Below, piece by piece: positions 18,997 to 64,000 of a DNA stretch of 64,000 bases. The DNA comes from Datisca glomerata. Lineage: Eukaryota > Streptophyta > Magnoliopsida > Cucurbitales > Datiscaceae. The notes beneath the pieces are model-generated. The model worked only from the letters and a program-made list of their open reading frames with translations. It was not told the DNA's origin and ran no database searches. The stretch is from contig QANY01008720.1 in the NCBI GenBank assembly GCA_003255025.1, positions 1,700,605 through 1,764,604 on the forward strand. The letters run 5' to 3'. Position 1 is the first letter of the stretch. Each line of letters starts with the position of its first letter. The translations under genes were made by a program, and so were the position numbers.

Positions 18997-19776
18997 GTTT
19001 CATGGCACCACTATAGTGCCGTGAGGCACTACAATATGCCATGTGGCACTATAATAGTCCATGTCAATCTTTGATTCCCAATCAGTGATTAGCATGTGGT
19101 AGTCTAACATTTCACGTGGTAATTTTTACAAATTTATTATTTATTTTAAATAGATCAATGTCTATATATCAGTTAATTCAGAGTTAACTTATTTGATATC
19201 CTTATCAACTAGTTTATTTGTTAGTTCACAAATAATAGATTTAGTAGATTCAAATTTTGAATTATTATCCTATAATAATTTATTATTATCTAATTTTACA
19301 AATTAGATATACTGTCTCACTTATTGATAATTATAAAAGTAATCGATATAATTATTTATTTGTAACTTCTGAAAATTACTATAAATAATTTAATTAATTA
19401 ATTCGTAATTAATTATTCACACATAATTATCTCATAATTGTGTACTTGCCCCAGAAATATAATTTTTTTTGCAAGTTAGTCCTTTTCTCATGTCTTGAAA
19501 TATTCACACTTTAGACTATGTAGTACAAAGGTGATTTGTAGATCATGGACCCATAATCCTAAGTTCTGATAAACCAGATTATTAAGTAAACTGTATAATT
19601 AAATAATCTTGTTTATTAATTTCATTATTACTCCACTATAAATATGAAATTGCACTTTTAGAGATTACATAATATATTTACAGAGTATTCTCGTGTAGTC
19701 AATTGATATAATCATTTCATGTATTTCTGTCATTTAATTATTGATTCAAAAATTAAAGCTGGTTAAAATTACTGTT
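18997..19776 (-). repeat. Right LTR of element B, second part, truncated
   Basis: Resumes the alignment with the left LTR at its position 4304 (GGCACCACTATAGTGCC) and runs to the equivalent of about 5075, where identity ends at GTTAAAATTACTG. The next bases are TTTAGGATTTTAGGG. The terminal 700 bp or so of the LTR, and any target duplication, are lost. Confidence 0.75.
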
Positions 19777-20149
19777 TAGGATTTTAGGGTTTAAGGTTTA
19801 TAGGTTTTAGGGTTTAGGATTTACGGTTTTAGGATTTTAGTGTTTAGGGTTTTCGGGTTTAAAATTTTAGGGTTTAGGGTTTAAGTTTTAGGGTTGTTTA
19901 ATGTTTAAAGTATAGGTTTTAGGGTTTAGGGTTTCAGGGTTTCAGGGTTTAGGGTTTTAAGGTTTAGGGTTTAGGATTTTAAGGTTTAGGTTTTAGGGTC
20001 TTGTATTTAGGGTTTTATAATTAGGGTTTAGGGTTTATTATTTAGGTTTTTTAAGGTTTTTTCGGGTTTAAAGTTCATAGTTTAGGCTTTTTATGGTTTA
20101 AGGTTTAGGGTTTAGAGTTTTAGGGTTTTTAGGCTTTAGGTTTTAGGGT

Positions 20150-20660
20150 ATATATAGCATAGACATTTCATCTCTCCTTGTAAACGCTTTGGCTGGAACT
20201 TAAGAAATCAACCCAAAATCTCAAATTATGCTTAGACATAAGTTAATTAAGGTTTAGATTGGTAATCATAAGTACGTTGTGGTTTACAGCTAAGGTTAAT
20301 GCTATTGAGATGCTATAGTTGTAGAATAAAGTTGATTAAGATAAAGTAATTGATATGGAACTTATCAATCCATATCTCATTGATATTAAATTAGTCTGCT
20401 ACTTTACAAATATTTTCTTATACTACTATATTAGTCATCTTAACCCAAGTTAGTTTTAACCATATTGATTCATCATTATTATTACTGCTCTATTTACAAG
20501 TTAAATCTTATTTGGTTTAATATATTTATCACATATTCATACTAGTCCCCATGGAGATCGACATTCACTTACTATTTTATTACTTATTAACGATTTAGCC
20601 CTAGCATATACACAAATCATACAACACCTCCTAAGAATAGATCTTTCTTCTTTGAACTTA
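20150..20660. repeat. Spacer S1 of telomere-like array (short type)
   Basis: Starts with TATATATAGCATAGACATTTC and ends near CTTTGAACTTAGGG. It contains GGCTGGAACTTAAGAAATCA and a TGGAGATCGACATTCACTTA block that resembles the 3' end of a gypsy-type LTR. No coding potential is recognised. Confidence 0.7.
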
Positions 20661-21209
20661 GGGTTTACGGTTTTAGGATGTAGGATTTTTAGAGTTCATG
20701 GTTTATGGATTTAGGTTTAGGGTTTAGGGTTTAATGTTTTGAGTTTTAGGGTTTAAGGTTTGGGGTTTAATCTTTAGGGTTTAGGGTTTTATGGTTTTGA
20801 GGATTAGAGTTTAGGGTTTAGGGTTTTAGGATTTAGGGTTTAGGATTTGAGAGTTTTGGGTTTTAGGGTTTAGGGTTTTAAAATTTAGGGTTTAGGGTTT
20901 ATGGGTTTTGGTATTTTTGGGTTTAGTGTTTTAGGGTAAAGGGTCTAGGGTTGTTTAGTGTTTAGGGTTTAAAGTTTAGGGTTTTAGAGTTCAGGGTTTT
21001 AGGGTTTAAGGTTTTAAAATTTAGGGCTTAGGGTTTTAGATTTAGAGTTTAAGGTTTTAGGTTTGGGGGTTTAGGATTTTAGGGTTTAGGACTTAGGGTT
21101 TAGTATTTAGGGTTTGTAGGGTTTTAAGGTTTAGGGTTCATGGTTTAGGTATTTTAGGGTTTATGGTTTAGGGTTTTAGAGTTTAGGCTTTAGGGTTGAG
21201 GGTTGAGGA

Positions 21210-21848
21210 TATATATAGCATAAACATTTCAGCTCGCCTTGTAAACCTTTTGGCTGGAACTTAAGAAATCAATCTATAATTTATAATTATGCTTAGATTG
21301 GTTATCGTAAGTACATTGTGATTTAGAGATGATGTTAATGCTACTGAGATGCTATGACTGTATAACAAAGCTAATTAGGATAAAGTAGTTGGTAGGGGAT
21401 TTATCGATACTAGCTACCAAAACCATTGACTATCTCATTGATATTAAGTTAGTTTGCTAACCATATTGATTCATCATTATTATTACAACCCTATCTGCAA
21501 GTTAAATCTATTTTGGTTCAATATATTTCATATTCACACTAGTCCATGTGGAGATCGACTCTCACTTACTACTTTATTACTTGCTAACAATATGTGCACT
21601 AGTGTATACACAAATCATACAACACCTCCTAAGAATAAAGGTTTACACGCAAACCCTATTATTTCCATTCCCGTTTTGGAAGGTGTTGAAAATTATGCAA
21701 AAGGCAAGAAAGATCTTTCTTCTTTGAACTTAGAGGAAAACTCACATGATGTCTCGGTTTTGGATGGTGATATTAAAGGGGAAGAGGAATTTTCCTTCTT
21801 TACACTCGTCTTCTAAAAACCCAAAATGGCTGGTTGAGAATATTTTGG
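21210..21848. repeat. Spacer S2 of telomere-like array (long type)
   Basis: The same spacer as S1, with about 150 bp extra at its right end. The extra part includes an open reading stretch (21454-21816), which recurs in S4. Conservation of the frame between copies could just reflect recent duplication, so no gene is called. Confidence 0.7.
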
Positions 21849-21966
21849 GGTTTAGGGTTTAGGAGTTAAGGTTTTAGGGTTTAGGAGTTAGGGTTTTAGG
21901 GTATTAGGGTTTTTAGAGTATATGGTTTTAGGGTTTAGGGTTTGAGGCTTAGACTTTAAGGTTTAT

Positions 21967-22491
21967 GGCATATGTATTATAGTAGGAACTTAAACCCTAT
22001 GGCAGGAACTTAAGAAATCAATCTATAATCTAAAATTATGCTTAAACATAAGTTAATTAAGGTTGAGATTGGTAATCGTAAGGACGACAGTTCATTGTGT
22101 TTTAGAGTTAAGGTTAATGCTACTAAGATGCTATAGCTATAAAATAAAGCTGATTAAGATAAAGTGTTTGATATGTGATTTATTTATCCTTACTAGCCGC
22201 CAAATCCATTGAATATCTCATTGAAATTAAGTTAGTTTGCTGCTTTGTATATATTATCTCATACTACTGTATTAGTCATCTTAATCTCAAGTTAGATTTA
22301 ACCATATTGATTCATTATTTCCCTATTTGCAAGTTAAATCTTCTTTGGTTCAATATATTTATTACATATTCATATTAGTCTCCATGGAGATAGACACTTA
22401 CTTATACTTTATTACTTGTTAACGATATGTGCACTAGTGTACACAAATCATACAACACTTCCTAAGAATAGATATTTCTTCTTTGTACTTA
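21967..22491. repeat. Spacer S3 of telomere-like array (short type)
   Basis: Aligns with S1 over its length and lies about 1.82 kb downstream of it, with the same short right end (CTTTGTACTTAGGG). The open frame 22175-22378 within it is not supported as a gene. Confidence 0.7.
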
Positions 22492-23034
22492 GGGTTTGAG
22501 GTTTTAGGATTTAGGGTTTTTAGAGTTTAGGGTTTATGGTTTTATGGTTTTAGAGTTTAGGGTTTAGGGTTTATAATTTAGGGTTTAATGTTTTGGGTTT
22601 TAGGGTTTTGAGTCTTAGGGTTTGGGGTTTAATCTTTAGAGTTTAAGGACAAGGATTTTAGGGTTTTGGGGATTAGGGTTTAGGGTTTTAGGATTAAGGC
22701 TTAGGTTTTGAGGGTTTAAGGTTTAGGTTTTGAGGGTTTAGAGTTTAGGGATTTAAGGTTTAGGGTTTAGGATTTAAGGGTTTTGGGTTTTAGGGTTTAG
22801 GTTTTAGGGTATATGTTGTTTAGTGTTTTGGGTATATGGTTTAGTGTTTAGGGTAGAGTTTAGGGTTTAGGGTTTAGGATTTTGAGGGTTTAAGGTTTAG
22901 GGTTTTAGGGTTTAGGACTTAAGGTTTAGTGTTTAGGGTTTAAGGTTCATGGTTTAAGTTTGTTAGGGTTTAGGGTTTCAGGTTTTAGGGTTTTAGGATT
23001 TTTAGGCTTCATGGTTTAAGGGTTGATGGTTTAG

Positions 23035-23621
23035 AGTATATGTAGCATAGACATTTCAGCTTACCTTGTAAACCCTCTGGCTGGAACTTAAGAAATCAAT
23101 CCACAATCTTAAATTATGCATAGACATAAGTTAATTAAGTTTTTTAATCGTAAGTACGTTCATTGGGCTTTAGAGCTAAGGTTAATGCTACTGAGATGCT
23201 CTAACTGTATAACAAGGCTAATTAAGATTAAGTAATTGATAGGAGATTTATCCATACTAGCTGCCGAAACCATTGAATATCTCATTGATATTAAGTTAGT
23301 TTCTAACCACATTGATATATCATTATTATTGTAGCCCTATTTGCAAGTTAAATCTGTTTTGGTTCAATATATTGCATATTCACACCACTGTCTGTGGAGA
23401 TCGATTCTCATTTACTACTTTATTACTTGTTAATAATACGTCCACTAGCGTATACACAAATCATTCAACACCCTCTAAGAATAGAGGTTTACACGTAAAC
23501 CCTATTATTTACATTCCCGTTTTGGAAAGTGTTGAAGATTGTGCAAAAGGCAATGCATATCTTTCTTCTTTGAGATTAGAGGAAAACTCACATGATGTCG
23601 CGGGTTTGGATGGTGATATTT
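23035..23621. repeat. Spacer S4 of telomere-like array (long type)
   Basis: Aligns with S2 about 1.82 kb downstream and has the same long right end, with the open stretch 23312-23623 (LEENSHDV and DGDI shared with S2). Confidence 0.7.
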
Positions 23622-23807
23622 AGGGTTTAGAGTTTAAAATTTATGGTTTATGGTTTAGAGTTTAGGGGTTAGGGTCTTAGGGTTTAGGGTTCTTAGGGTA
23701 GGGTAGAGTTTATGGTTTTAGGATTTTAGGGTATTAGGGTTGCTTAGGTATAGAGTTTTAGGGTTTAGGGTTTATGATTCGTTATTTATGATTTAAGGTT
23801 TAAGATT

Positions 23808-54969: not shown

Positions 54970-55899
54970 AAGCTAAAAAAACATGTTCAATGTCAAAACC
55001 CTACATTGATTATAAACTTATTAAGAATCCTCGTTCCATCAAAATCAAACTCCGATAACTTCAACATGTGCTTCTACCATTGTCTCGTCTGTAGGCCTCT
55101 CAACCTTCTGCCATGGCCGCCTTAATATTCTTGCTTTCATTGGATTTTGCTTTTGAGCCATTTATACTTGTCAAAGTCCTATTGAGAACTTGATGGCCCA
55201 TATTGCTGACCCCAATTACTGTAATGTTTTTTCAGTATTTTCAAGAGAAAAAGAGGTAGAATAGAGAGAAGAAGAACATAAAAGTTTTTGTTGTTGTAGA
55301 ATGATAGAAGGAAGAAGAAGAAGAAAAAAAGGGAGATAAAAGGTTTTTTTTGCTAAAGTAGATCCCTACACTAACTATTTTGTAGAATTCGATCCCTACA
55401 CTAATTTTTACTTACCCTGACTCCTGGCTTACCTTCAATTCCTAATCATCTTATGAAGTTACCAAATAGCCCCTTCACGTATTTCAAAAGATGGATGGAA
55501 AAAAGTGATGATTACACGAAATCCCACCTTTTTGTGTACCTCACTTGAATTTACTTCATTTTTCTCTTACTATTACTATCTCTCACTTCTCGAAGTCGCA
55601 ACATCTCTCTCTACAAGTCCTTGAGTCTTCATCTCCCACAATAAGGAATCACAACAAGGTAAGTTTTTGGGTTTCTGAGTTTTTATTTTCTGGATTCTGA
55701 GGTATTTTTTCCAGTTTTCTGAGGTGTTATTTTCTGGGTTTCTAAGGGTATTTTTTTGGATTTCTGCATTTCTATTTTTTATGGATGTCTGAATCACAAC
55801 AAGGTTATTTTTTGGGTTTCTAATATTTTTTCTGGGTTTCTGAGTGTTTCTTATTCTGGGATTCTAAGGATCTGGTCTTGCATCGTGTCTATTTTCTGG
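54970..55899. other. Junction region with GAA-rich strip and degenerate GGGTTTCTGAG repeat
   Basis: No gene recognised up to about 55330. 55305-55345 is GAAGAA-rich. From about 55350 (AAGTAGATCCCTACACTAAC, repeated as GAATTCGATCCCTACACTAA) the sequence probably belongs to the Mutator-like element. 55660-55870 repeats TTTTCTGGGTTTCTGAGG-like phrases about every 20-30 bp. A donor-like AAGGTAAGTTTT is at 55656, suggesting a leader intron that ends at 56221 in front of the Ulp1 gene start. Confidence 0.45.
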
Positions 55900-56183
55900 G
55901 TACACTCTCATCGTGTAACCATTCTATAGTCTACACGATGATCATGTACACTACAATATGATTACACATGGGTCATCTAAGTCTCATGTAGGCTACATGA
56001 GGACTACACGAGGGTCGTGTACCCTTCATGTAGTCTACACGGGAACTACACGAGGGTAGTGTAAAGCTCGTGTAGGCTACATGCGAGCTACACAAGGATC
56101 ATGTACCCTTCATGTAATCTACAAGAGGCTTACACGAGGATTGTGTAGTTAGTCTACACGATGACTACACGAGCATTATGTAC
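55900..56183. repeat. CATCGTGTAG/CTACACGATG array 1 (5' leader intron of Ulp1 gene)
   Basis: About ten degenerate copies of CTACACGAGG/CTACACGATG and its complement, spaced 15-30 bp. They lie between a donor-like site at 55656 and the acceptor TTTTTTTACAG at 56221, upstream of the first ATG. Confidence 0.85.
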
Positions 56184-57391
56184 ATTTTCTGATTCTATGT
56201 TTACCTTGATTTTTTTTACAGGTTATGGCTTCATCAAAGATGCAACTAAGATACGTCCATGACGTTAACAGAATACCAAAAGAAAAGGACAATGCAAAGT
56301 GCAATACCCACTGCATAGAGGTTATCAAGATCAAGCTCACAACTTCTCAACTCAACCTATGTAGGAAGACATGCTTTGGCCATCTCCTTAATCTCCTAGC
56401 CCTGAAGTTTCAGCAACTATCTGCCACCAGGTGCTGGCTAGGGAGGTCGAATATGATAATAACACTCCATCTGAGAAGGAAATCCGGTTTCTTATCAGTG
56501 AGATACCCCTGTACTTTTCTAAGAAGGAGTTCTCATTGATGACTGAACTAAAGTTTGGTGAAGCCTGGGATGAGAAGAAGACCCATGGCCCTAACAAAAT
56601 ATATGATCTGTGCTTTCCCAAAGCCCAATCAATAGCCATCTGAGCTGTAGGAGAAGTTTAAAAACTCTAAATATAAGTCGTATTCAGATGGGGTCAAGAT
56701 GACTCTGATTTATATGCTAGAGAATTTTTTTTTGTTGGGAAGGAAATCATACCCTAATTGAGAAGAGATTGTTGGTTTTAGTTGACAACCTTGAAGCGTT
56801 CAAAAAATATCCGTGGGGAGAGCTATCTTTCTCCAAAATAATGAAATCATTATTAGCCGTTAAGAATGACTATTTTTGGTGATTTTAAAGATCAAGAGAA
56901 AAAACAAAAAAATCCCCCGCTGCTGTTCATGGATATTCATTCAATGGATGTCTATTTTCCTTCTAGGAATAATTTATTTAACTCTATGTAGTGATTTATT
57001 GAATTATTTATGTGTTAAATACCGAATTACTCTCTTTTGTTTAAATAGGCATGTGTATTTGAAACTATCTACTTGGTGGGTAGTTTGCATGGTAACCAGA
57101 TTTCGACCAAGGTGCCAAGGATTTTCAAGTGGTGTCCGACCACGATAGTACCAGTTGGGAATCTACAAAAAGAATTTTTTTCGATGGAGAATGTATGTTG
57201 GTAATTAAGTTAACAAGTTGATTTGTCTTACTTTCACATATACTAATTTATATTTCTTGCATTTTTAGTTGACGGTTCTTTCCTTGGGCCCTTGCTAGTG
57301 AGGAGGAAGAAGAGAAAAACTTCTGGAGATCAATAATTGGAGAGAAGTAATGTTAAAAATCATTTTCTACCCTTCTTCTTCTTGAACAAGG

Positions 57392-57636
57392 ACCTCATGT
57401 AATTATCATGTAGACTACACGATGGTTACACTGACCTCGAGTCATCGTGTAGTCTACACGATGTCTACACTGCTCTCGTGTAATCATTGTGTAAATCAGT
57501 CTAACCATCATGTAGATTACACGAGGTATGTGTAACTGATCTTGTAGTCTTCACGATGACTACACGAGATGCGTGTAACAATCGTGAAGTCTACACGATG
57601 ACTACACAATGTCAGTGTAATCATCATCCTGTAGTC
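57392..57636. repeat. Palindromic array 2 (intron of Ulp1 gene)
   Basis: Lies wholly between exon ends 57347 and 57683. At 57443-57463 CATCGTGTAG is followed, after one base, by its reverse complement CTACACGATG, a near-perfect palindrome. About twelve half-sites in total. Confidence 0.85.
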
Positions 57637-57904
57637 ACCATTTTTCTATTTTGTCTGCTTAATATTAAATGTTTTTTCTAGTCGCGGACCATTGAAAAAA
57701 TAGAGGAGAAGAAGATTGTGTCTAAAACGTTCAATGGACATGAATATTGAGTAAGGAAATGTCTGATTAGAGTGGACAAAAGACCACTTCAATGGACAAG
57801 AAGATTATGTCCATGCAATTAACCAAATTAAAATTTTGATGGATCATCTGGTAACATCGAGGTCAGATGATTACTCATTCTGTCCTCAATCTTCCATGAT
57901 GATG

Positions 57905-58560
57905 GCTAGCGATGGGGAGGAGACATAGATTGAGAAGGAAGAGAAAAAATAAAGAAGGAGAGAAGGATGAAAAAGAAGAAGATATGGTAGAGAAGGAAGT
58001 AGAAGAAGAGATAGTAGAGAAGGAAGAAGAAGAAGAAGAGAAGGAACAGAAGGAAGAAGAAGAAAAAGAAGAAGAGAAGGTAGAAGAAAAAGATGAAAAA
58101 GAAGAAGAGAAAATAGAAGAAAAAGAAGAAGAGAAGGTTGAAGGAAAATATGAAAAAGAAGTAGAAAAAGAAGAAGAGAAAGAAGAAAGAGAATGTGAGA
58201 AAGAAGAACAAGAAAAAGAAGGAAGAGAAGAAGAAGAAGTGAAAGAAGGTAAAAAGGAGGAGGAAGGTGAAAAGAAGGAAGATGAAGAAAAAACTAAGGG
58301 AAAAAAGAAATAGAAGAGACAAAAGAAAAAAATGAACAAACAGAAGAAAATATAAAAAAGAAGAGAACAAAAAATAAGTAGAAGAGAAAACAGAAGAAAA
58401 AAAGTACACAAAGTAGAAGAAAAAGAAGGGAAGAAGGTGAAGAAAATAAGATTTAGAAGGAATAAATAGGAAAAAAAGAAAAAAAGAAGAAGACGAAGCT
58501 GAAAAAAAGAAGCAGAAGAAGAAGAAGAAGAAGAAACAAAAAATGAAGAATAAAAGGTTG
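57905..58560 (+). repeat. Long purine tract (GAA/GAG-rich) in Ulp1 exon
   Basis: Almost every base on the + strand is A or G for about 650 bp. The + frame 57912-58313 encodes Glu/Lys-rich low-complexity sequence. Long charged linkers are common in these transposon Ulp1 proteins. The minus-strand Phe/Ser-rich frames (57875-58411) are mirror artefacts. Such strand asymmetry can form triplexes or R-loops. Confidence 0.85.
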
Positions 58561-58884
58561 CATCGATAATATCTGCATTGATGGATTTAGTTCAGTCAAC
58601 GGAGCAGTCCAACGATAAAGAAGAAGAATAGCTCGTTTGCCTTAGTCAACTCAGTAAGAGAAAGATAAAGAGATCTCAGGTCTTAGAGTCACCTAATTGG
58701 GAAACCAAAAAAGTTGAAAAGAAGAAGCAGTGAAAGAAAAAAGCTGATGAAAATATCGTTGCCAAAACGAACTTCAAACCTTTCAACCACATGGTGATGT
58801 ATCTTTAGAGGATGAAGCCCATTTTAAAGTCTAGTTCACCAACCCAAGGGAAAAATGAGTTCTGTAATTTTACTTATTATTCTC

Positions 58885-59150
58885 ATACAGAATGGTTACA
58901 CGGACCTCGTGTAACCATCGTGTTGGTTACATTGATCTCATGTAGCCATTGTGTAGTATACATGATGGTTACAGTAACATCGTGTATACTACACGATGGT
59001 TACACTGACCTCGTGTATACTACACGATGGTTACAGTAACATCGTGTATACTACACGATGGTTACACTGACCTCGTGTAGCCATCGTATAGTATCACGAT
59101 GGTTACACTGACATTGTGTAGCCACCGTGTGGTAAACCGATTGTGTACCT
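58885..59150. repeat. Palindromic array 3 (intron of Ulp1 gene, 31-bp units)
   Basis: Regular tandem repeat of 31 bp: TATACTACACGATGGTTACA followed by CTGACCTCGTG, with CTGACC alternating with GTAACA. Fills the interval between exons ending at about 58863 and starting at 59179. Confidence 0.85.
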
Positions 59151-59459
59151 AATTTTGATATATAATTACATTGTACAGGAATCAGAAAGTAGACGTTGGA
59201 TTTTGCACTATTGACCTTACCTGGTTAAAACAACTAATCTTTTCACCTTATCAATGGCTTGAGTCAGATGTAAGAAGTTATTTATAATCTTTTTTAATGT
59301 GGTATTTAAAATAATCATAAATATCTTAACTAATCTTTATGGATTTTACAGCATATCGATGCATATCTGGAGCTCATGAGGAGGGATTTGCAAGAATACA
59401 ACCTTTATATCAGAATTAGTGTTGATGATTTGATTATGCAAGTAAGTAAGATTTATTCT

Positions 59460-59625
59460 ACACAAGTCCTTCACATTACCTCCTGTAGACTACATGAAGT
59501 CTACATGAGGCCCGAGACTACATGAAGTCTACACGAGGCCATTCACAGGCATCGTGTAGACTTCATGTAGTCTACACGAGGCAATGTGGAAGGCCTTGTG
59601 TAAACTTCATGTAGTCTTCATGACC
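59460..59625. repeat. Palindromic array 4 (intron of Ulp1 gene)
   Basis: Copies of GACTACATGAAGTCTACA and GTGTAGACTTCATGTAGTC alternate, i.e. a variant of the same motif with a CATGAAG core. Between exons ending 59441 and starting 59675. Confidence 0.85.
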
Positions 59626-60387
59626 ATATTTTATTGACGTTGATTATTAAAATTTTTTCCCGTGACATTATAAGGGAACCTGTCTGGCCGAATGGAAGAG
59701 TTTGAGTAAGATCCCGCAGGCTAGAATATTGACATTGATGATCAGCTCTGGTACCTGGTCCTCGACTTGCTGATGAATTTTGGAAGGAGCTTGGAACAAT
59801 CAGATAAGGTTATCTTTTCAATGAATGTGAACCATAGTCATTGGATTGCGGTTGAGCTTGATTCGAATGGCTAGTGTATTCGTATTTATAACTCCATGAA
59901 CACGCCAAATCAACGCTCCTTGTACATTGAAATAATGAAATCTTTTATGAAGATTGTCAATCAGCTTCTTCAAATGATGAACATTTATGAGAGAAAACAG
60001 GAGGTTAAACCTAAAGATGAGTGAAAATATGAGATCATGAAGTGTTCACAACAAGAGAATGAGTAAGTGAAATATACATTTTTTATGAAAGTCCACTTAA
60101 AATTTCATACAGATTATTTATTTTTATTTTTACATTTTGTGTGTTTTGCAGGTTCGATTGTGGGGTATTCACCCTTAAATTTATCGAAACCCTCACATAT
60201 GGGAAGAACCTCTAAGAAATAACTCAACAACAAATATCAAAATATCAAAGACGAATTATAATTGAGTTATTTGCACGTGATATAGTTGTACCGAAATAAT
60301 TTGGATATATTTTATGAATTTTTATTTTATTTTTATACACCCTCAATTGTGAAATATGGATTATGAGTTTTTTTTTGTTACTATATG

Positions 60388-60650
60388 TTTAGTGTAGGCT
60401 TCATGTAGCCTACACGATGGTTTCACGGTCATCGTGTAGGCTTTGTGTAACCTACACGATGCCTTCAAGGGCATCATGTAGCCTACACGATGACTTCATT
60501 AGAATCATGTAGTCTTCATGTTGCCTACACGATAACTTCACGGGCATCGTGTAGTCTTCTTGTAGCCAACACGAGTCCTGCACAAGCATCGTGTAGTCTT
60601 CATGTAAGCTACACGATGACTTCACGGGCATCGTGTAGGATTCATGTAGG
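60388..60650. repeat. Palindromic array 5 (between convergent genes, about 42-bp units)
   Basis: Unit of about 42 bp: GCATCGTGTAGTCTTCATGT then AGCCTACACGATGACTTCAC. Sits between the Ulp1 gene end (60299) and the transposase stop (60756), where both transcripts would terminate. Confidence 0.85.
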
Positions 60651-61699
60651 GTAATTGAACTTTATAAAATTATTAAATAACAAACACAAGTATATTTCTA
60701 TATTAATATTTAATTTAAGTCTACAAATGTCATTATTTATATTTAAGTAGTTTGGTCATCCCATTGAGATAGACGAATCGGATTTCTGCACGTTTGTTCG
60801 GTTGTGGCCAATTTGCTCACAACGTTTGCACTTCCTTCTCACTACTTGCTCACCTCTAGATGGAATTCTCTCTGTCCTAGGTCTGCCACTTTGCCGCCTC
60901 ATTATGGGTAGAAATACCACTTTTTCATGAACCTCATGGCTGACGACCCAATCTACTTGATCTTCGAGAGGATGTATGTTTCCACATACGCAGTAATTAG
61001 AACATCATTTTTATAGAACCTCGATCACATACTGTATGCCAAAATATTGCGCTGCCGACATGAAGCCAACGCATGCTTTCATGGAGTTTGATCAAGATTA
61101 TTTTCTCTGCACGTACATGTCTTAAGATGGAAGTTTAGCACTGCTTCCCTATCCCCGCCTGCGACATGAAACTCGTGGATGTCAGAAGGAAACAATGATA
61201 GTGTACGTGATGCAAGATGCTTCTTATTAAGCTCAGTCTCAACCTAATCTATCATCTGCGAGGTGATTTGACAGGCAAGCGTCCGTCGTTCATAGAACAA
61301 CCGTTATAAATTAATTTGATATTTTGGCCCATATGGAAGATGTAAGCTCCATGAAGTGAGAAAGACAACCTATACAACATTTATTATACTTGTATGCCTG
61401 TCGAATATAAACACCAAGTCTTCCGGATCACCGATTACATCGTGAAGTTTATGGAAGAACCATTCCCATGAATCATTATTTTCTGAATCTGAAATTCCAA
61501 ATGCAATGAGATATACTTGGTTGTTCCCATCCTTTGTTGTTTCAACAAATAATACCCTGTTGTATTTGGCTTTTCAGGTGGTTGCATCAACATCAATGAC
61601 ATGCCGTATAGCTAAAAAATCCACGAACAAAGGGTCTAAGAGCCATGAAAAAATATTTAAAATGATCATTCTCATCGGTCTCTATATGTGTTATTGACC

Positions 61700-61996
61700 C
61701 TGAAAAATATTTAATATTATTGTATTAAAATCGGTAGAGTACATAATGTACATGATGCGTACACAAGGCTAGTGTAACCATCATGTAGACTACACGATTA
61801 CTACACGAAGTCAGTGTAGTACTCGTGTAGACATTATGATGGAAAAATAGTGTACATGATGACTACATGAGCTCAGTGTACCCTTCGTGTAGACTACACG
61901 ATGACAACACGTGGTCAGCGTACCCATCGTGTAGTATACATGATAACTGCACGAGGCTCGTGTAGACACTATGATGGAAAAATGAAAAATAAGTAC
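61700..61996 (-). other. Intron of the Mutator-like transposase gene
   Basis: Minus-strand donor CCAG|GTACTT at 61997/61996 and acceptor TTTTTCAG|GGTCAA at 61700/61699 restore the conserved KNPGSITHIETD join of MULE transposases. Array 6 occupies most of the intron. Confidence 0.8.
61738..61975. repeat. Palindromic array 6 (intron of transposase gene)
   Basis: About ten half-sites (CATCATGTAGACTACACGAT, CTCGTGTAGACAC and similar) inside the intron 61700-61996. Two copies of TATGATGGAAAAAT also bracket sub-blocks. Confidence 0.85.
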
Positions 61997-63192
61997 CTGG
62001 ATTTTTTTATTCTAACATTTGACAATATGCTAGGAGCATCCTATAGTTGTCTTCAGGAGACTCTCGAACTAATTTCAAAGCATATTCCCTAGCCCTCCAT
62101 GCCTTATGGTAATTTATGTTAACACCGAAATCAAGCCGAACATCTTCAATTATGTCTTTTGGCCTATATATACGTCCAACACCCGTGTATTTGGACCTTA
62201 TAGAATGACCAATCAATGAATATGTAGCCTGATTGTGTTCATGTCTCAATACTTCAAATGTGCATGTATGCATATTGATGAACTTTGTAACTTTAAAGTA
62301 TGGACAATTTTTCAATTTCATGGCTCGTAACCTCCATTGGCATGTTTTCTCAACACATACAAGTACCAATATTGAATGGTTTGACTTGAAGATCCGAAAC
62401 TCAAAATTTCTCCAGATGGCCATCATACGAGCAACCTTAAGCAACTCAGCTTTATCACTGTACAAATCATCCATATTTATTATGTATGATACAAGTTGAT
62501 TCAAATCAGCCTTTGCTCACCGAACCCAGGACGTTGTTCATTCAAATCAGGTTGTCATGGCAATGCACAAATGGTCTCGAATTCAAGACCAGTATTCAAG
62601 TCTGAAATTGTTGCATGGTCGTCTCCGCAGATGGCTTTATCACGGTCATCTCCATGGATTGCACCATCATACGCCCCCTAATCAAAATCATCATCATCTC
62701 CATCTCCATCAACATCCTCATCCTCGAACCCAACTTTGATAAAATCTTGTAGTTTCAGGAACTTGAGATTGTTGTGACATTGTGGTTTGAGGAACCGAGC
62801 TTTGAGATGGAAATTTTTTTGGCTTGTTACTTACAAATAGTGGGCTTCTAAGTGATTCTGATTCATTCTTCTTAACAAAGAACTTTAAATCTCTATCCTT
62901 TAAAATTTGAGCAGGAGGGTAGGGGACATGACTTCTATAAAAAAATTTGATGGACATATCATACTTTAAGGGGTCTATTTGGAGTTTTTCATGCAATATA
63001 CCCAATAGCTTGTCGTAAGTGCAGTTAGTTAATGTCTCCAGTAATTTGGTCTTCTCTCCACTAAAAAACCATGTTGTACCATTTCCACCCAATCTCCATT
63101 ATGGATTACAAAAATTTGAACTTCAGACATATCTGTATATACATCAATGAAGGAAGTCAATACAAGAAGAATACATAATGAAATGGAATATT

Positions 63193-63745
63193 ACACGATG
63201 CTCATGTAGTCATCATGCAACCATCGTGTAACTATCGTGTAGTCATCGTGTAGTGTAATAGGTCCTACACAAGGACTACATGATGATCATGTAGTGTAAT
63301 CGTGTAATGTAGATGAGGACTACACAATGATCGTGTAGTTCCATCTTGTAGACTACACAAGGACTACACGATGATTGTATAGTTCCATCGTGTAGTGTAC
63401 ACGAGGATCGTGTAGTGTAATCATGTAGTGTACAAGAGTACACGATCATCATAAGGTCATCCTGTACCTTACACGATGACACTACACGATGATCGTGTAG
63501 TGTAATAGATGCTACACGATGCTCGTGAACTACTGAAGAAGTTCCTGATGCACTACACGATGATCGTGTAGTGTAATAGATACTACAGGATGCTCGTGAA
63601 CTGCTGAAAAAGTTCTTGATGCACTACACGATGATCATGTAGTGTACAGAAGGTCAACAGTCGGATCGCGTACCCCGCGTGTAGTCTACATGAGGCTCGG
63701 GTACACGAGGCTCGTGTAGACCTCGTTTAACAAAACACTATCATC
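63193..63745. repeat. Palindromic array 7 (upstream of transposase start)
   Basis: The longest array, with well over twenty half-sites. It includes two tandem 71-bp units at about 63498-63640 containing CGTGAACTACTGAAGAAGTT between ACACGATG half-sites. It lies upstream of the transposase ATG, probably in a leader intron: minus-strand acceptor TATATACAG just before the ATG, and a donor-like GGTAAGCTTG near 63858. Confidence 0.85.
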
Positions 63746-64000
63746 ATGTAGTGATCTTGTTTAATAAATGAGCTTTAAACAATGTTCTAGAAAGAAGAAA
63801 ATAAATAAATATTCACAGAAAAATCATGAACAAGAAAAATACATGAAAGTTCAAGCTTACCATAAATAGAAGGAAGAAAACAAAACTTATACATGTTGGA
63901 GGGAGAAGAGCTAACAATCATTTACTGTTGGAGGAAGAGGGAAGAAGACGAAGAAGAAGACGAAGAAGCAAACGAAGAGGAAAACAAAGAAGAAAATGAA
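63746..64000. other. Window edge, GAAGAAG-rich DNA
   Basis: Likely transposase leader and promoter of the Mutator-like element. From about 63890 the + strand is dominated by GAAGAAGACGAAGA-type purine repeats. No gene is seen and the element end is not reached. Confidence 0.4.

What the first reader, a model, noticed from the sequence alone, without database searches (positions are those of the whole stretch)
55900..63745. One palindromic motif family fills noncoding parts of a two-gene Mutator-like element
Seven separate arrays are built from CATCGTGTAG and its complement CTACACGATG. They occupy the Ulp1 leader, three Ulp1 introns, the gap between the convergent genes, the single transposase intron and the transposase leader. 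No array enters an exon. Four very short introns (about 70-170 bp) lack them. Each array has its own period (31, about 42 and 71 bp), so the arrays expanded independently from a shared half-site. This suggests a motif that spreads within the element, perhaps as a transposase-binding site, a recombination-driven minisatellite or a source of hairpin RNA.
Basis: partly seen in the sequence, partly recalled or inferred. Interest (0 to 1): 0.78.

Follow-up and report, generated by a model that had tools for sequence, protein, structure and literature searches.

The report
Binding-site arrays of an anti-silencing transposon
A plant jumping gene carries dozens of copies of a short DNA word in its introns and spacers, most likely docking sites for its own protein that keeps the host from silencing it, and a sister group in the same genome has a similar layout with a different word.

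Summary
CATCGTGTAG occurs 27 times in the window, all in the element (chance 0.03). Seven arrays touch no exon of my model. The element is larger than stated: about 8.9 kb, with inverted repeats, one end beyond the window.

Best reading: binding-site arrays for the element's own VANC-like protein (DUF1985, probably with Ulp1), the anti-silencing factor known from Arabidopsis VANDAL elements. Support: (1) a DUF1985 profile of this genome matches VANC21, solved structure 9lnj, E 1.4e-16. (2) Of 50 DUF1985 loci, 19 of 21 in one clade carry CTACACGA, 8 of 9 in the sister clade CTACTTGA, 20 others neither; no locus has an array of the wrong word. (3) Two sister-clade elements hold the other word at corresponding places. 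(4) Spacings peak at 10.3-10.6 bp, one DNA turn, in both orientations. (5) In eight copies, 0 of 292 sites lie in 14.9 kb of recognised coding DNA.

Transposase binding is less likely, since the second word is absent from the ends of L040. Hairpin RNA is not excluded. A new member of a known kind; binding and demethylation are inferred.

The parts
55332..55340 (.). Left 9-bp target-site duplication GGAGATAAA (right copy GGAGACAAA at 64224-64232, beyond the window; 8 of 9 alike)
   Evidence: Flanks printed; compared by eye
55341..55430 (+). Left terminal inverted repeat; partner at about 64139-64223 beyond the window, 78.6% over 84 bp
   Evidence: homology among sister copies begins sharply here
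55659..56221 (+). Predicted 5' leader intron of the VANC-like gene, holding array 1
   Evidence: Splice-like sites read; donor word in 14 and acceptor word in 17 of 19 sister loci, up to 2 mismatches
55881..56174 (.). Array 1, in the VANC-like leader
56225..56905 (+). VANC-like gene, first coding exon with DUF1985 (frame broken in this copy)
   Evidence: PF09331 pieces E 0.016 and 2.4e-5, below the family cut-off; pieces 50-68% identical to L024, whose domain scores 92 bits
57049..57345 (+). VANC-like gene, short exons 2 and 3 (approximate)
   Evidence: 57049-57177 56-72% identical to L041, L072, L073; the rest from reading and open frames
57404..57634 (.). Array 2, intron
57682..58860 (+). 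VANC-like gene, acidic and lysine-rich repetitive exon (approximate, frame broken)
   Evidence: Open frames; tandem repeats
58890..59145 (.). Array 3, intron; 31-bp period
59352..59446 (+). VANC-like gene, exon before the Ulp1 part
   Evidence: 39-76% identical to L040, L041, L073
59479..59617 (.). Array 4, intron; best period 13.9 bp, not phased at 10.5
59675..60235 (+). Ulp1-like (C48) part, split by a short intron; HW, YNS and DCG words kept, frame carries stops
   Evidence: PF02902 E 0.0074, below cut-off; words read; 42-75% identical pieces in L041, L042, L073
60392..60650 (.). Array 5, between the convergent genes
60745..61699 (-). Transposase exon 2: MULE domain and zinc knuckle
   Evidence: PF10551 E 8.3e-10; PF15288 E 0.0074, below cut-off
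61700..61983 (-). Transposase intron holding array 6 (61743-61975)
   Evidence: Splice-like ends read; array
61992..63130 (-). Transposase exon 1: DBD_Tnp_Mut domain; predicted start at 63130; one frame change within
   Evidence: PF03108 E 1.8e-7; 150 scored copies in the genome
63133..63860 (-). Predicted 5' leader intron of the transposase gene, holding array 7
   Evidence: Splice-like sites read; not checked in other copies
63191..63751 (.). Array 7, the largest (33 sites with up to 2 mismatches); weakly phased

Best explanation
The arrays are binding sites for the element's own VANC-like protein (DUF1985, probably with an Ulp1 domain). The protein would bind the word YTACACGA many times over, on one face of the DNA, along the introns, the 5' leaders and the spacer, and so remove or keep off DNA methylation there, letting both genes be expressed despite host silencing. 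The sites lie outside exons because they arise by tandem duplication, which only noncoding DNA tolerates. Protein and word change together: a sister clade of DUF1985 proteins goes with CTACTTGA. Shown here: DUF1985 kinship to VANC21, co-segregation of clade and word, arrays at corresponding places in two sister elements, avoidance of recognised coding DNA, helical phasing. Inferred from the Arabidopsis work: binding, demethylation and advantage to the element.
For: A DUF1985 profile of 12 loci of this genome hits VANC21 in PDB 9lnj/9lnk, E 1.4e-16, the only hit at E up to 1. Of 50 DUF1985 loci (of 150 listed), 19 of 21 in clade A carry CTACACGA, 8 of 9 in clade B carry CTACTTGA, 20 of 20 others have fewer than 3 sites of either; 5 label changes on the tree against 21.5 for shuffled labels, as low in 0 of 200. 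B elements L039 and L040 have the same convergent layout, transposase segments 38-65% identical to this one's, and CTACTTGA arrays before the DUF1985 exon, after it, between the genes and before the transposase. Same-strand spacing peaks at 10.5 bp in A (17 loci) and 10.4 bp in B (8 loci); opposite-strand pairs, convergent and divergent taken apart, at 10.3-10.6 bp. In the window the mean phasing is 0.63 against at most 0.25 in 1000 random placements. 0 of 292 sites in recognised coding segments of eight copies. Published: VANC21 binds, and VANC6 acts on, short words that form tandem repeats in noncoding parts of their own VANDAL elements (PMC5735166, passages and section 10).
Against: No binding, methylation or expression data. 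Elements with DUF1985 and a transposase but without dense arrays exist in this genome (L047, L049), and 20 of the 50 loci lack arrays, so DUF1985 does not need them. A and B differ in transposase as well as in DUF1985, so co-segregation alone does not say which protein reads the word. Sites here face both ways, whereas VANDAL21 sites are described as same-orientation. Only two word classes, so the co-divergence rests on essentially one switch. Three loci inside clades A and B lack the word in the stretch read (L054, L064, L067). Opposite-strand pairs of B, when pooled, peaked at 13.6 bp and weakly (0.35); the helical peak shows only when convergent and divergent pairs are taken apart. The random-placement control does not imitate tandem copying, which repeats spacings.
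Confidence: 0.82

Rival explanations
1. The arrays are internal transposase-binding sites that help the transposase gather the element.
For: The left inverted repeat of this element holds CCCTACACTAA twice, sharing CTACAC with the array word. The transposase differs between groups A and B, as the word does.
Against: Both ends of B element L040, the one looked at, hold no CTACTTGA. By eye, the A majority consensus and L040's right end share CTCCTGGCCCACC, a better candidate for a transposase site; but three letters of that consensus are under 60%, this element's own ends differ from it at 2 and 3 letters and L040's left end at 4, and no chance control was run. Transposase-bearing relatives L047 and L049 have no dense arrays. 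I know of no Mutator-like transposase that uses dense intronic arrays (recall).
Confidence: 0.08
2. The arrays serve as hairpin-forming RNA, a source of small RNAs or a decoy for the silencing machinery.
For: Inverted site pairs make array RNA fold far better than shuffles in the three arrays folded, of seven: z -11.5, -12.9 and -6.0.
Against: Inverted pairs give hairpins whatever the word, so this does not explain one word per DUF1985 clade, nor spacing by helical turns in same-strand pairs. Six of seven arrays would be spliced out if the predicted introns are right. It may be a side effect: tandem repeats as small-RNA sources are discussed for VANDAL elements (PMC10398659, passage).
Confidence: 0.06
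3. The arrays are neutral minisatellites that grew by slippage where selection does not act.
For: Within-array likeness exceeds between-array likeness (not corrected for length); exon avoidance would follow from coding constraint alone.
Against: The separate arrays of this element keep the same core: single-letter variants at its T, A, C and A total 6 against 47 exact sites in the window, and 25 against 98 in 15 sister leaders. Two sister elements carry arrays of another word at corresponding places. Helical phasing of two different words, in both orientations, is not expected from slippage.
Confidence: 0.04

Closest known systems
VANC21 and VANC6 with their target arrays in VANDAL21 and VANDAL6 of Arabidopsis (PMC5735166, passages and section 10 read)
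   Same: DUF1985 protein and Mutator transposase in one element; short word in dense tandem repeats; introns and upstream regions rather than coding parts; each protein has its own word; transposase described as better conserved than VANC.
   Different: Words here are YTACACGA and CTACTTGA, not YAGTATTAY or AGTTGTCC/AGTTGTAC. Sites here face both ways. This element has inverted repeats of 84 bp and two recognised genes, where VANDAL21 has three.
Ulp1-bearing Mutator-like elements: KIU/Kaonashi of Arabidopsis and relatives in melon, grapevine and rice (review PMC13317346, passages read)
   Same: A Mutator-like element whose VANC-type gene carries an Ulp1 domain; the review says that Ulp1-bearing VANC genes also act on specific words in noncoding parts of their own kin.
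   Different: The review passages that I saw name no words to compare; the Ulp1 score of this broken copy is below Pfam's cut-off.
Diversified VANC systems across eudicots (EMBO J 2022, recalled; not held)
   Same: As I recall its abstract: VANC proteins gained and lost DUF1985, DUF287 and Ulp1 across eudicots, and target words act by sequence, density and helical periodicity.
   Different: I could not check whether this species or these words are in it.

Membership tests
VANC-type anti-silencing Mutator-like element | Mutator-like transposase gene | tested here: met
   PF10551 E 8.3e-10 and PF03108 E 1.8e-7, both above cut-off
VANC-type anti-silencing Mutator-like element | Second gene homologous to VANC | tested here: met
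   DUF1985 pieces in the window, below cut-off; sister copy L024 scores 92 bits; profile of 12 sister loci hits VANC21 9lnj, E 1.4e-16. The window's own broken copy was not searched against 9lnj.
VANC-type anti-silencing Mutator-like element | Short word dense in noncoding parts as tandem repeats | tested here: met
VANC-type anti-silencing Mutator-like element | Word and VANC protein diverge together | tested here: met
   Two word classes, each within one clade of a DUF1985 tree of 50 loci; one switch only
VANC-type anti-silencing Mutator-like element | Helical spacing of sites (criterion recalled) | tested here: met
   two of the seven window arrays are weakly phased or not phased
VANC-type anti-silencing Mutator-like element | Protein binds the word and removes methylation from its targets | not testable with these tools
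   Needs binding and methylation experiments
VANDAL in the strict sense (non-TIR element with VANA, VANB, VANC) | No terminal inverted repeats, as the review PMC13317346 has it | tested here: not met
   Inverted repeats over 84 bp, 78.6%; B element L040 84 bp, 77.4%, with a 9 of 9 target duplication. The criterion is soft: PMC10398659 speaks of TIRs of VANDAL21 copies.
VANDAL in the strict sense (non-TIR element with VANA, VANB, VANC) | Three genes | tested here: inconclusive
   Two genes recognised; a diverged or lost VANB was not searched for
Ulp1-VANC (KIU) element | Ulp1 (C48) domain in the DUF1985 gene | tested here: inconclusive
   PF02902 16.6 bits against a cut-off of 20.7; HW, YNS and DCG words present by reading

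The most novel reading that the evidence does not exclude
Two sister DUF1985 proteins in one genome read words of one frame, CTAC-xx-GA, with only the middle pair changed (AC to TT), and each has filled its element with sites turned to the same side of the helix in both orientations. The proteins would then form a one-sided, orientation-blind coat over introns and leaders, and the A/B pair with the VANC21 structure would give a readable DNA-recognition code for DUF1985.
Probability: 0.3. Interest if true: 0.72.

Novelty: new member of a known kind. Interest (0 to 1): 0.5.

Why it matters
It extends the VANC type of anti-silencing to a Mutator-like element with inverted repeats in an unnamed, plant-like genome of 678 Mb, with thousands of first-look candidate places (150 scored for each gene) and two sister word classes side by side. 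That makes the open question of how DUF1985 proteins choose their words testable: two related proteins, two words that differ at two central letters, a solved structure of a homologue, and a spacing rule that can be altered in synthetic arrays. It also suggests a simple scan for such systems in other genomes: short words phased by helical turns in the noncoding parts of elements with DUF1985.

Tried and rejected
Words in other DUF1985 clades: no dense array. The commonest 8-mer of single loci stays within the shuffle maximum in 16 of 20 leaders or close to it; it exceeds it in L018 (6 against 4), L060 (4 against 3) and L062 (7 against 4, a GA-rich simple repeat), and equals it in several others; of four 10-kb loci only L047 exceeds it (12 against 10). 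For comparison, B element L039 has 86 against 8. Clade L011/L018/L030/L056/L065 has scattered ATGTTTAC, 18 against 0.55 expected: a possible third word, not claimed. GTATCTAA in clade L012 and kin has at most five copies a locus, often at similar places in different copies, and is not an array.

L010 has three CTACTTGA sites besides 15 CTACACGA; the three are singletons at 109, 621 and 2159, not an array. By a rule of three sites it would bear both labels; I labelled it by the commoner word.

CpG decay: TACATGA (24) and TACACAA (8) are among the commonest variants in the window arrays. The 3-to-1 skew recurs in the other two A sets (41 to 12, 78 to 23), so decay of a methylated CpG does not explain it alone; TACATGA may be a tolerated site. 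Left open.

Second ends of L043 and L044 were not found, and L042's ends gave no clear target duplication (best 7 of 8).

Host name: not found. A protein search returned two unnamed hits. Structure prediction was not tried: the window's own protein is broken, and loci from the genome search are not on that tool's list of allowed inputs. Genome count of the second word, ACTACTTGAA: not completed, the machine was busy each time.
Full report
OBSERVATION. CATCGTGTAG occurs 27 times in the window, all within 55,900-63,745, against 0.03 expected. Seven arrays hold them. My hand-drawn exon model has 0 exact sites in 4854 bp of exon and 27 in 3806 bp of the rest; with one mismatch 1 and 62; with two 3 and 109. 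At two mismatches the exons have 0.62 sites per kb and the rest of the window 0.63. So exons are at background.

THE ELEMENT. Sister copies show a sharp start of homology at GGTTTTTT, and the inverse of that end lies at 64139-64220, just past the window: 78.6% over 84 bp. The flanks give a 9-bp duplication, GGAGATAAA and GGAGACAAA, 8 of 9 (letters, compared by eye). The element is therefore about 8.9 kb. On + it has a gene with DUF1985 and an Ulp1-like end, on - a transposase with PF10551 and PF03108. Both genes are broken. DUF1985 and Ulp1 scores of this copy are below Pfam's cut-offs; an unbroken first exon in a sister copy, L024, scores 92 bits for DUF1985.

HOW COMMON. The genome (678 Mb, 1358 contigs) has 23,697 exact sites against 514 for the reversed word. 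DUF1985 has 150 scored places of 2290 first-look candidates, the transposase exon 150 scored of 3438; these are lower bounds. The first 100 places listed fall into nine clusters. I fetched eight, not the one on C2. Five carry transposase segments, four of these also segments of the DUF1985 gene (L041, L042, L072, L073; L071 has the transposase alone). Three (L043, L044, L070) carry no coding match but one end like this element's, E 3e-24, 8e-13 and 2e-8, and may be non-coding derivatives; their second ends were not found. The sample is one contig, and L071 and L072 are alike.

TWO WORDS, TWO CLADES. Thirty DUF1985 loci gave 15 with CTACACGA (4-21 copies in 3.4 kb), 3 with CTACTTGA (14-31) and 12 with fewer than 3 of either; each label is one side of a branch on the DUF1985 tree. 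I then fetched 20 more leaders, chosen by me for unusual domain ends. On the tree of 50, clade A (support 99/98) has 19 of 21 with CTACACGA, clade B (99/96) has 8 of 9 with CTACTTGA, and 20 of 20 others have fewer than 3 of either. Labels need 5 changes; shuffled labels 21.5 on average, none of 200 as low. The misses are L054 and L067 (0 and 2 sites) in A and L064 in B, each seen over 1.4 kb only. L010, in clade A, has three scattered CTACTTGA sites besides 15 CTACACGA. The tree is rooted at the midpoint, forks within A and B are mostly unresolved, and the program warns of long branches between the array-bearing and the other clades. DUF1985 of L029 and L031 (B) are 39 and 37% identical to L024 (A); transposase segments of L039 and L040 are 38-65% identical to this element's.

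SAME PLACES, OTHER WORD. B elements L039 and L040 have the DUF1985 gene and the transposase convergent as here. Their CTACTTGA arrays lie before the DUF1985 exon, after it, ahead of the transposase's 3' end (between the genes, as far as recognised) and before the transposase. L040 has inverted repeats over 84 bp, 77.4%, and a 9 of 9 target duplication AATTAATAA, the best of a scan of offsets. The transposase intron array of A has no counterpart in B: the coding segments on either side of that place lie 142 bp apart in L039 and L040, against 437 bp here.

PHASING. Distances between same-strand sites peak at 10.5 bp in A (17 loci with enough pairs, 16 of them between 10.2 and 10.8) and 10.4 bp in B (8 of 8). 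Opposite pairs, taken apart as convergent and divergent, peak at 10.3-10.6 bp with strengths 0.72-0.78; between 10.2 and 10.8 lie 8 of 12 and 15 of 16 A loci and 8 of 8 and 7 of 7 B loci. Before I took them apart, the pooled opposite pairs of B peaked at 13.6 bp, weakly (0.35), and those of A at 10.5 (0.57). The phases of opposite pairs in A (+1.3 and -1.3) mean that a point near the middle of the word faces the same side whichever way it points; for B (+1.9 and -3.6) the fit is looser. In the window, six of seven arrays peak at 10.4-10.7; the 59479 array does not, and the largest array is weak. Sites of one array are not independent, since tandem copying repeats spacings, and the random-placement control does not imitate that; the agreement between arrays, copies and the two words is the stronger point.

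EXONS. In eight copies (window, L039-L042, L071-L073) 0 of 292 core sites lie in 14,876 bp of tblastn-recognised coding DNA; the remaining 35,432 bp of the spans hold 292. The remainder includes unrecognised exons.

A profile of 12 DUF1985 loci of this genome finds one PDB sequence, VANC21 (9lnj, 9lnk), residues 107-235, E 1.4e-16; L024 alone finds it at 0.00073 over 173 residues. A search for a paper on that structure (terms VANC21, structure, DNA-binding, from 2023) found none in the held library. Published work shows that VANC21 binds YAGTATTAY in noncoding parts of VANDAL21, that coding probes bind much less well, that the sites sit in changing tandem repeats in introns and upstream regions, and that VANC6 goes with AGTTGTCC and AGTTGTAC (PMC5735166, passages and section 10). 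A review says that Ulp1-bearing VANC genes act the same way on their own kin (PMC13317346, passages). An EMBO J 2022 paper that I recall as reporting helical periodicity is not held; phrases of its title occur in four held papers (listing).

RIVALS. Transposase sites: this element's left repeat holds CCCTACACTAA twice, which shares CTACAC with the word; but L040's ends hold no CTACTTGA, and by eye the A consensus and L040's right end share CTCCTGGCCCACC, with 2-4 letters different in the other ends looked at. Hairpin RNA: the three arrays folded, of seven, fold far better than shuffles; possible as a side effect. Neutral minisatellite: does not explain one word per clade or the phasing.

VERDICT. 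The sequence evidence makes this a VANC-type, self-targeting anti-silencing system in a Mutator-like element with inverted repeats. It does not fit the review's description of VANDALs as non-TIR, though another paper speaks of TIRs of VANDAL21. Binding and demethylation are inferred.

Noticed in passing
19774-20149, 20658-21208, 21844-21965, 22489-23034, 23619-23774: Degenerate interstitial arrays of the plant telomere word TTTAGGG.
   Followed up: no
57925-58535: Glutamate- and lysine-rich repetitive exon of the VANC-like gene, itself made of tandem repeats; published VANC proteins also have variable parts with repeated peptides.
   Followed up: no
L011, L018, L030, L056, L065: Scattered ATGTTTAC/TGTAAACA in the leaders of another DUF1985 clade, ATGTTTAC 18 against 0.55 expected; possibly a third, low-density word.
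   Followed up: partly
61700-61983: The transposase intron with array 6 has no counterpart in B elements, where the flanking coding matches lie 142 bp apart; in relatives without dense arrays, L047 and L049, they lie about 220 bp apart, which suggests a short old intron enlarged by the array in A.
   Followed up: partly
55881-63751: The A word holds one CpG and the B word none; TACATGA variants outnumber TACACAA 24 to 8 in the window arrays, and about 3 to 1 in two other sets.
   Followed up: partly
L043:4219-5284 and L044:4120-5812: Array-bearing copies without coding matches have large internal inverted repeats, like foldback elements.
   Followed up: no
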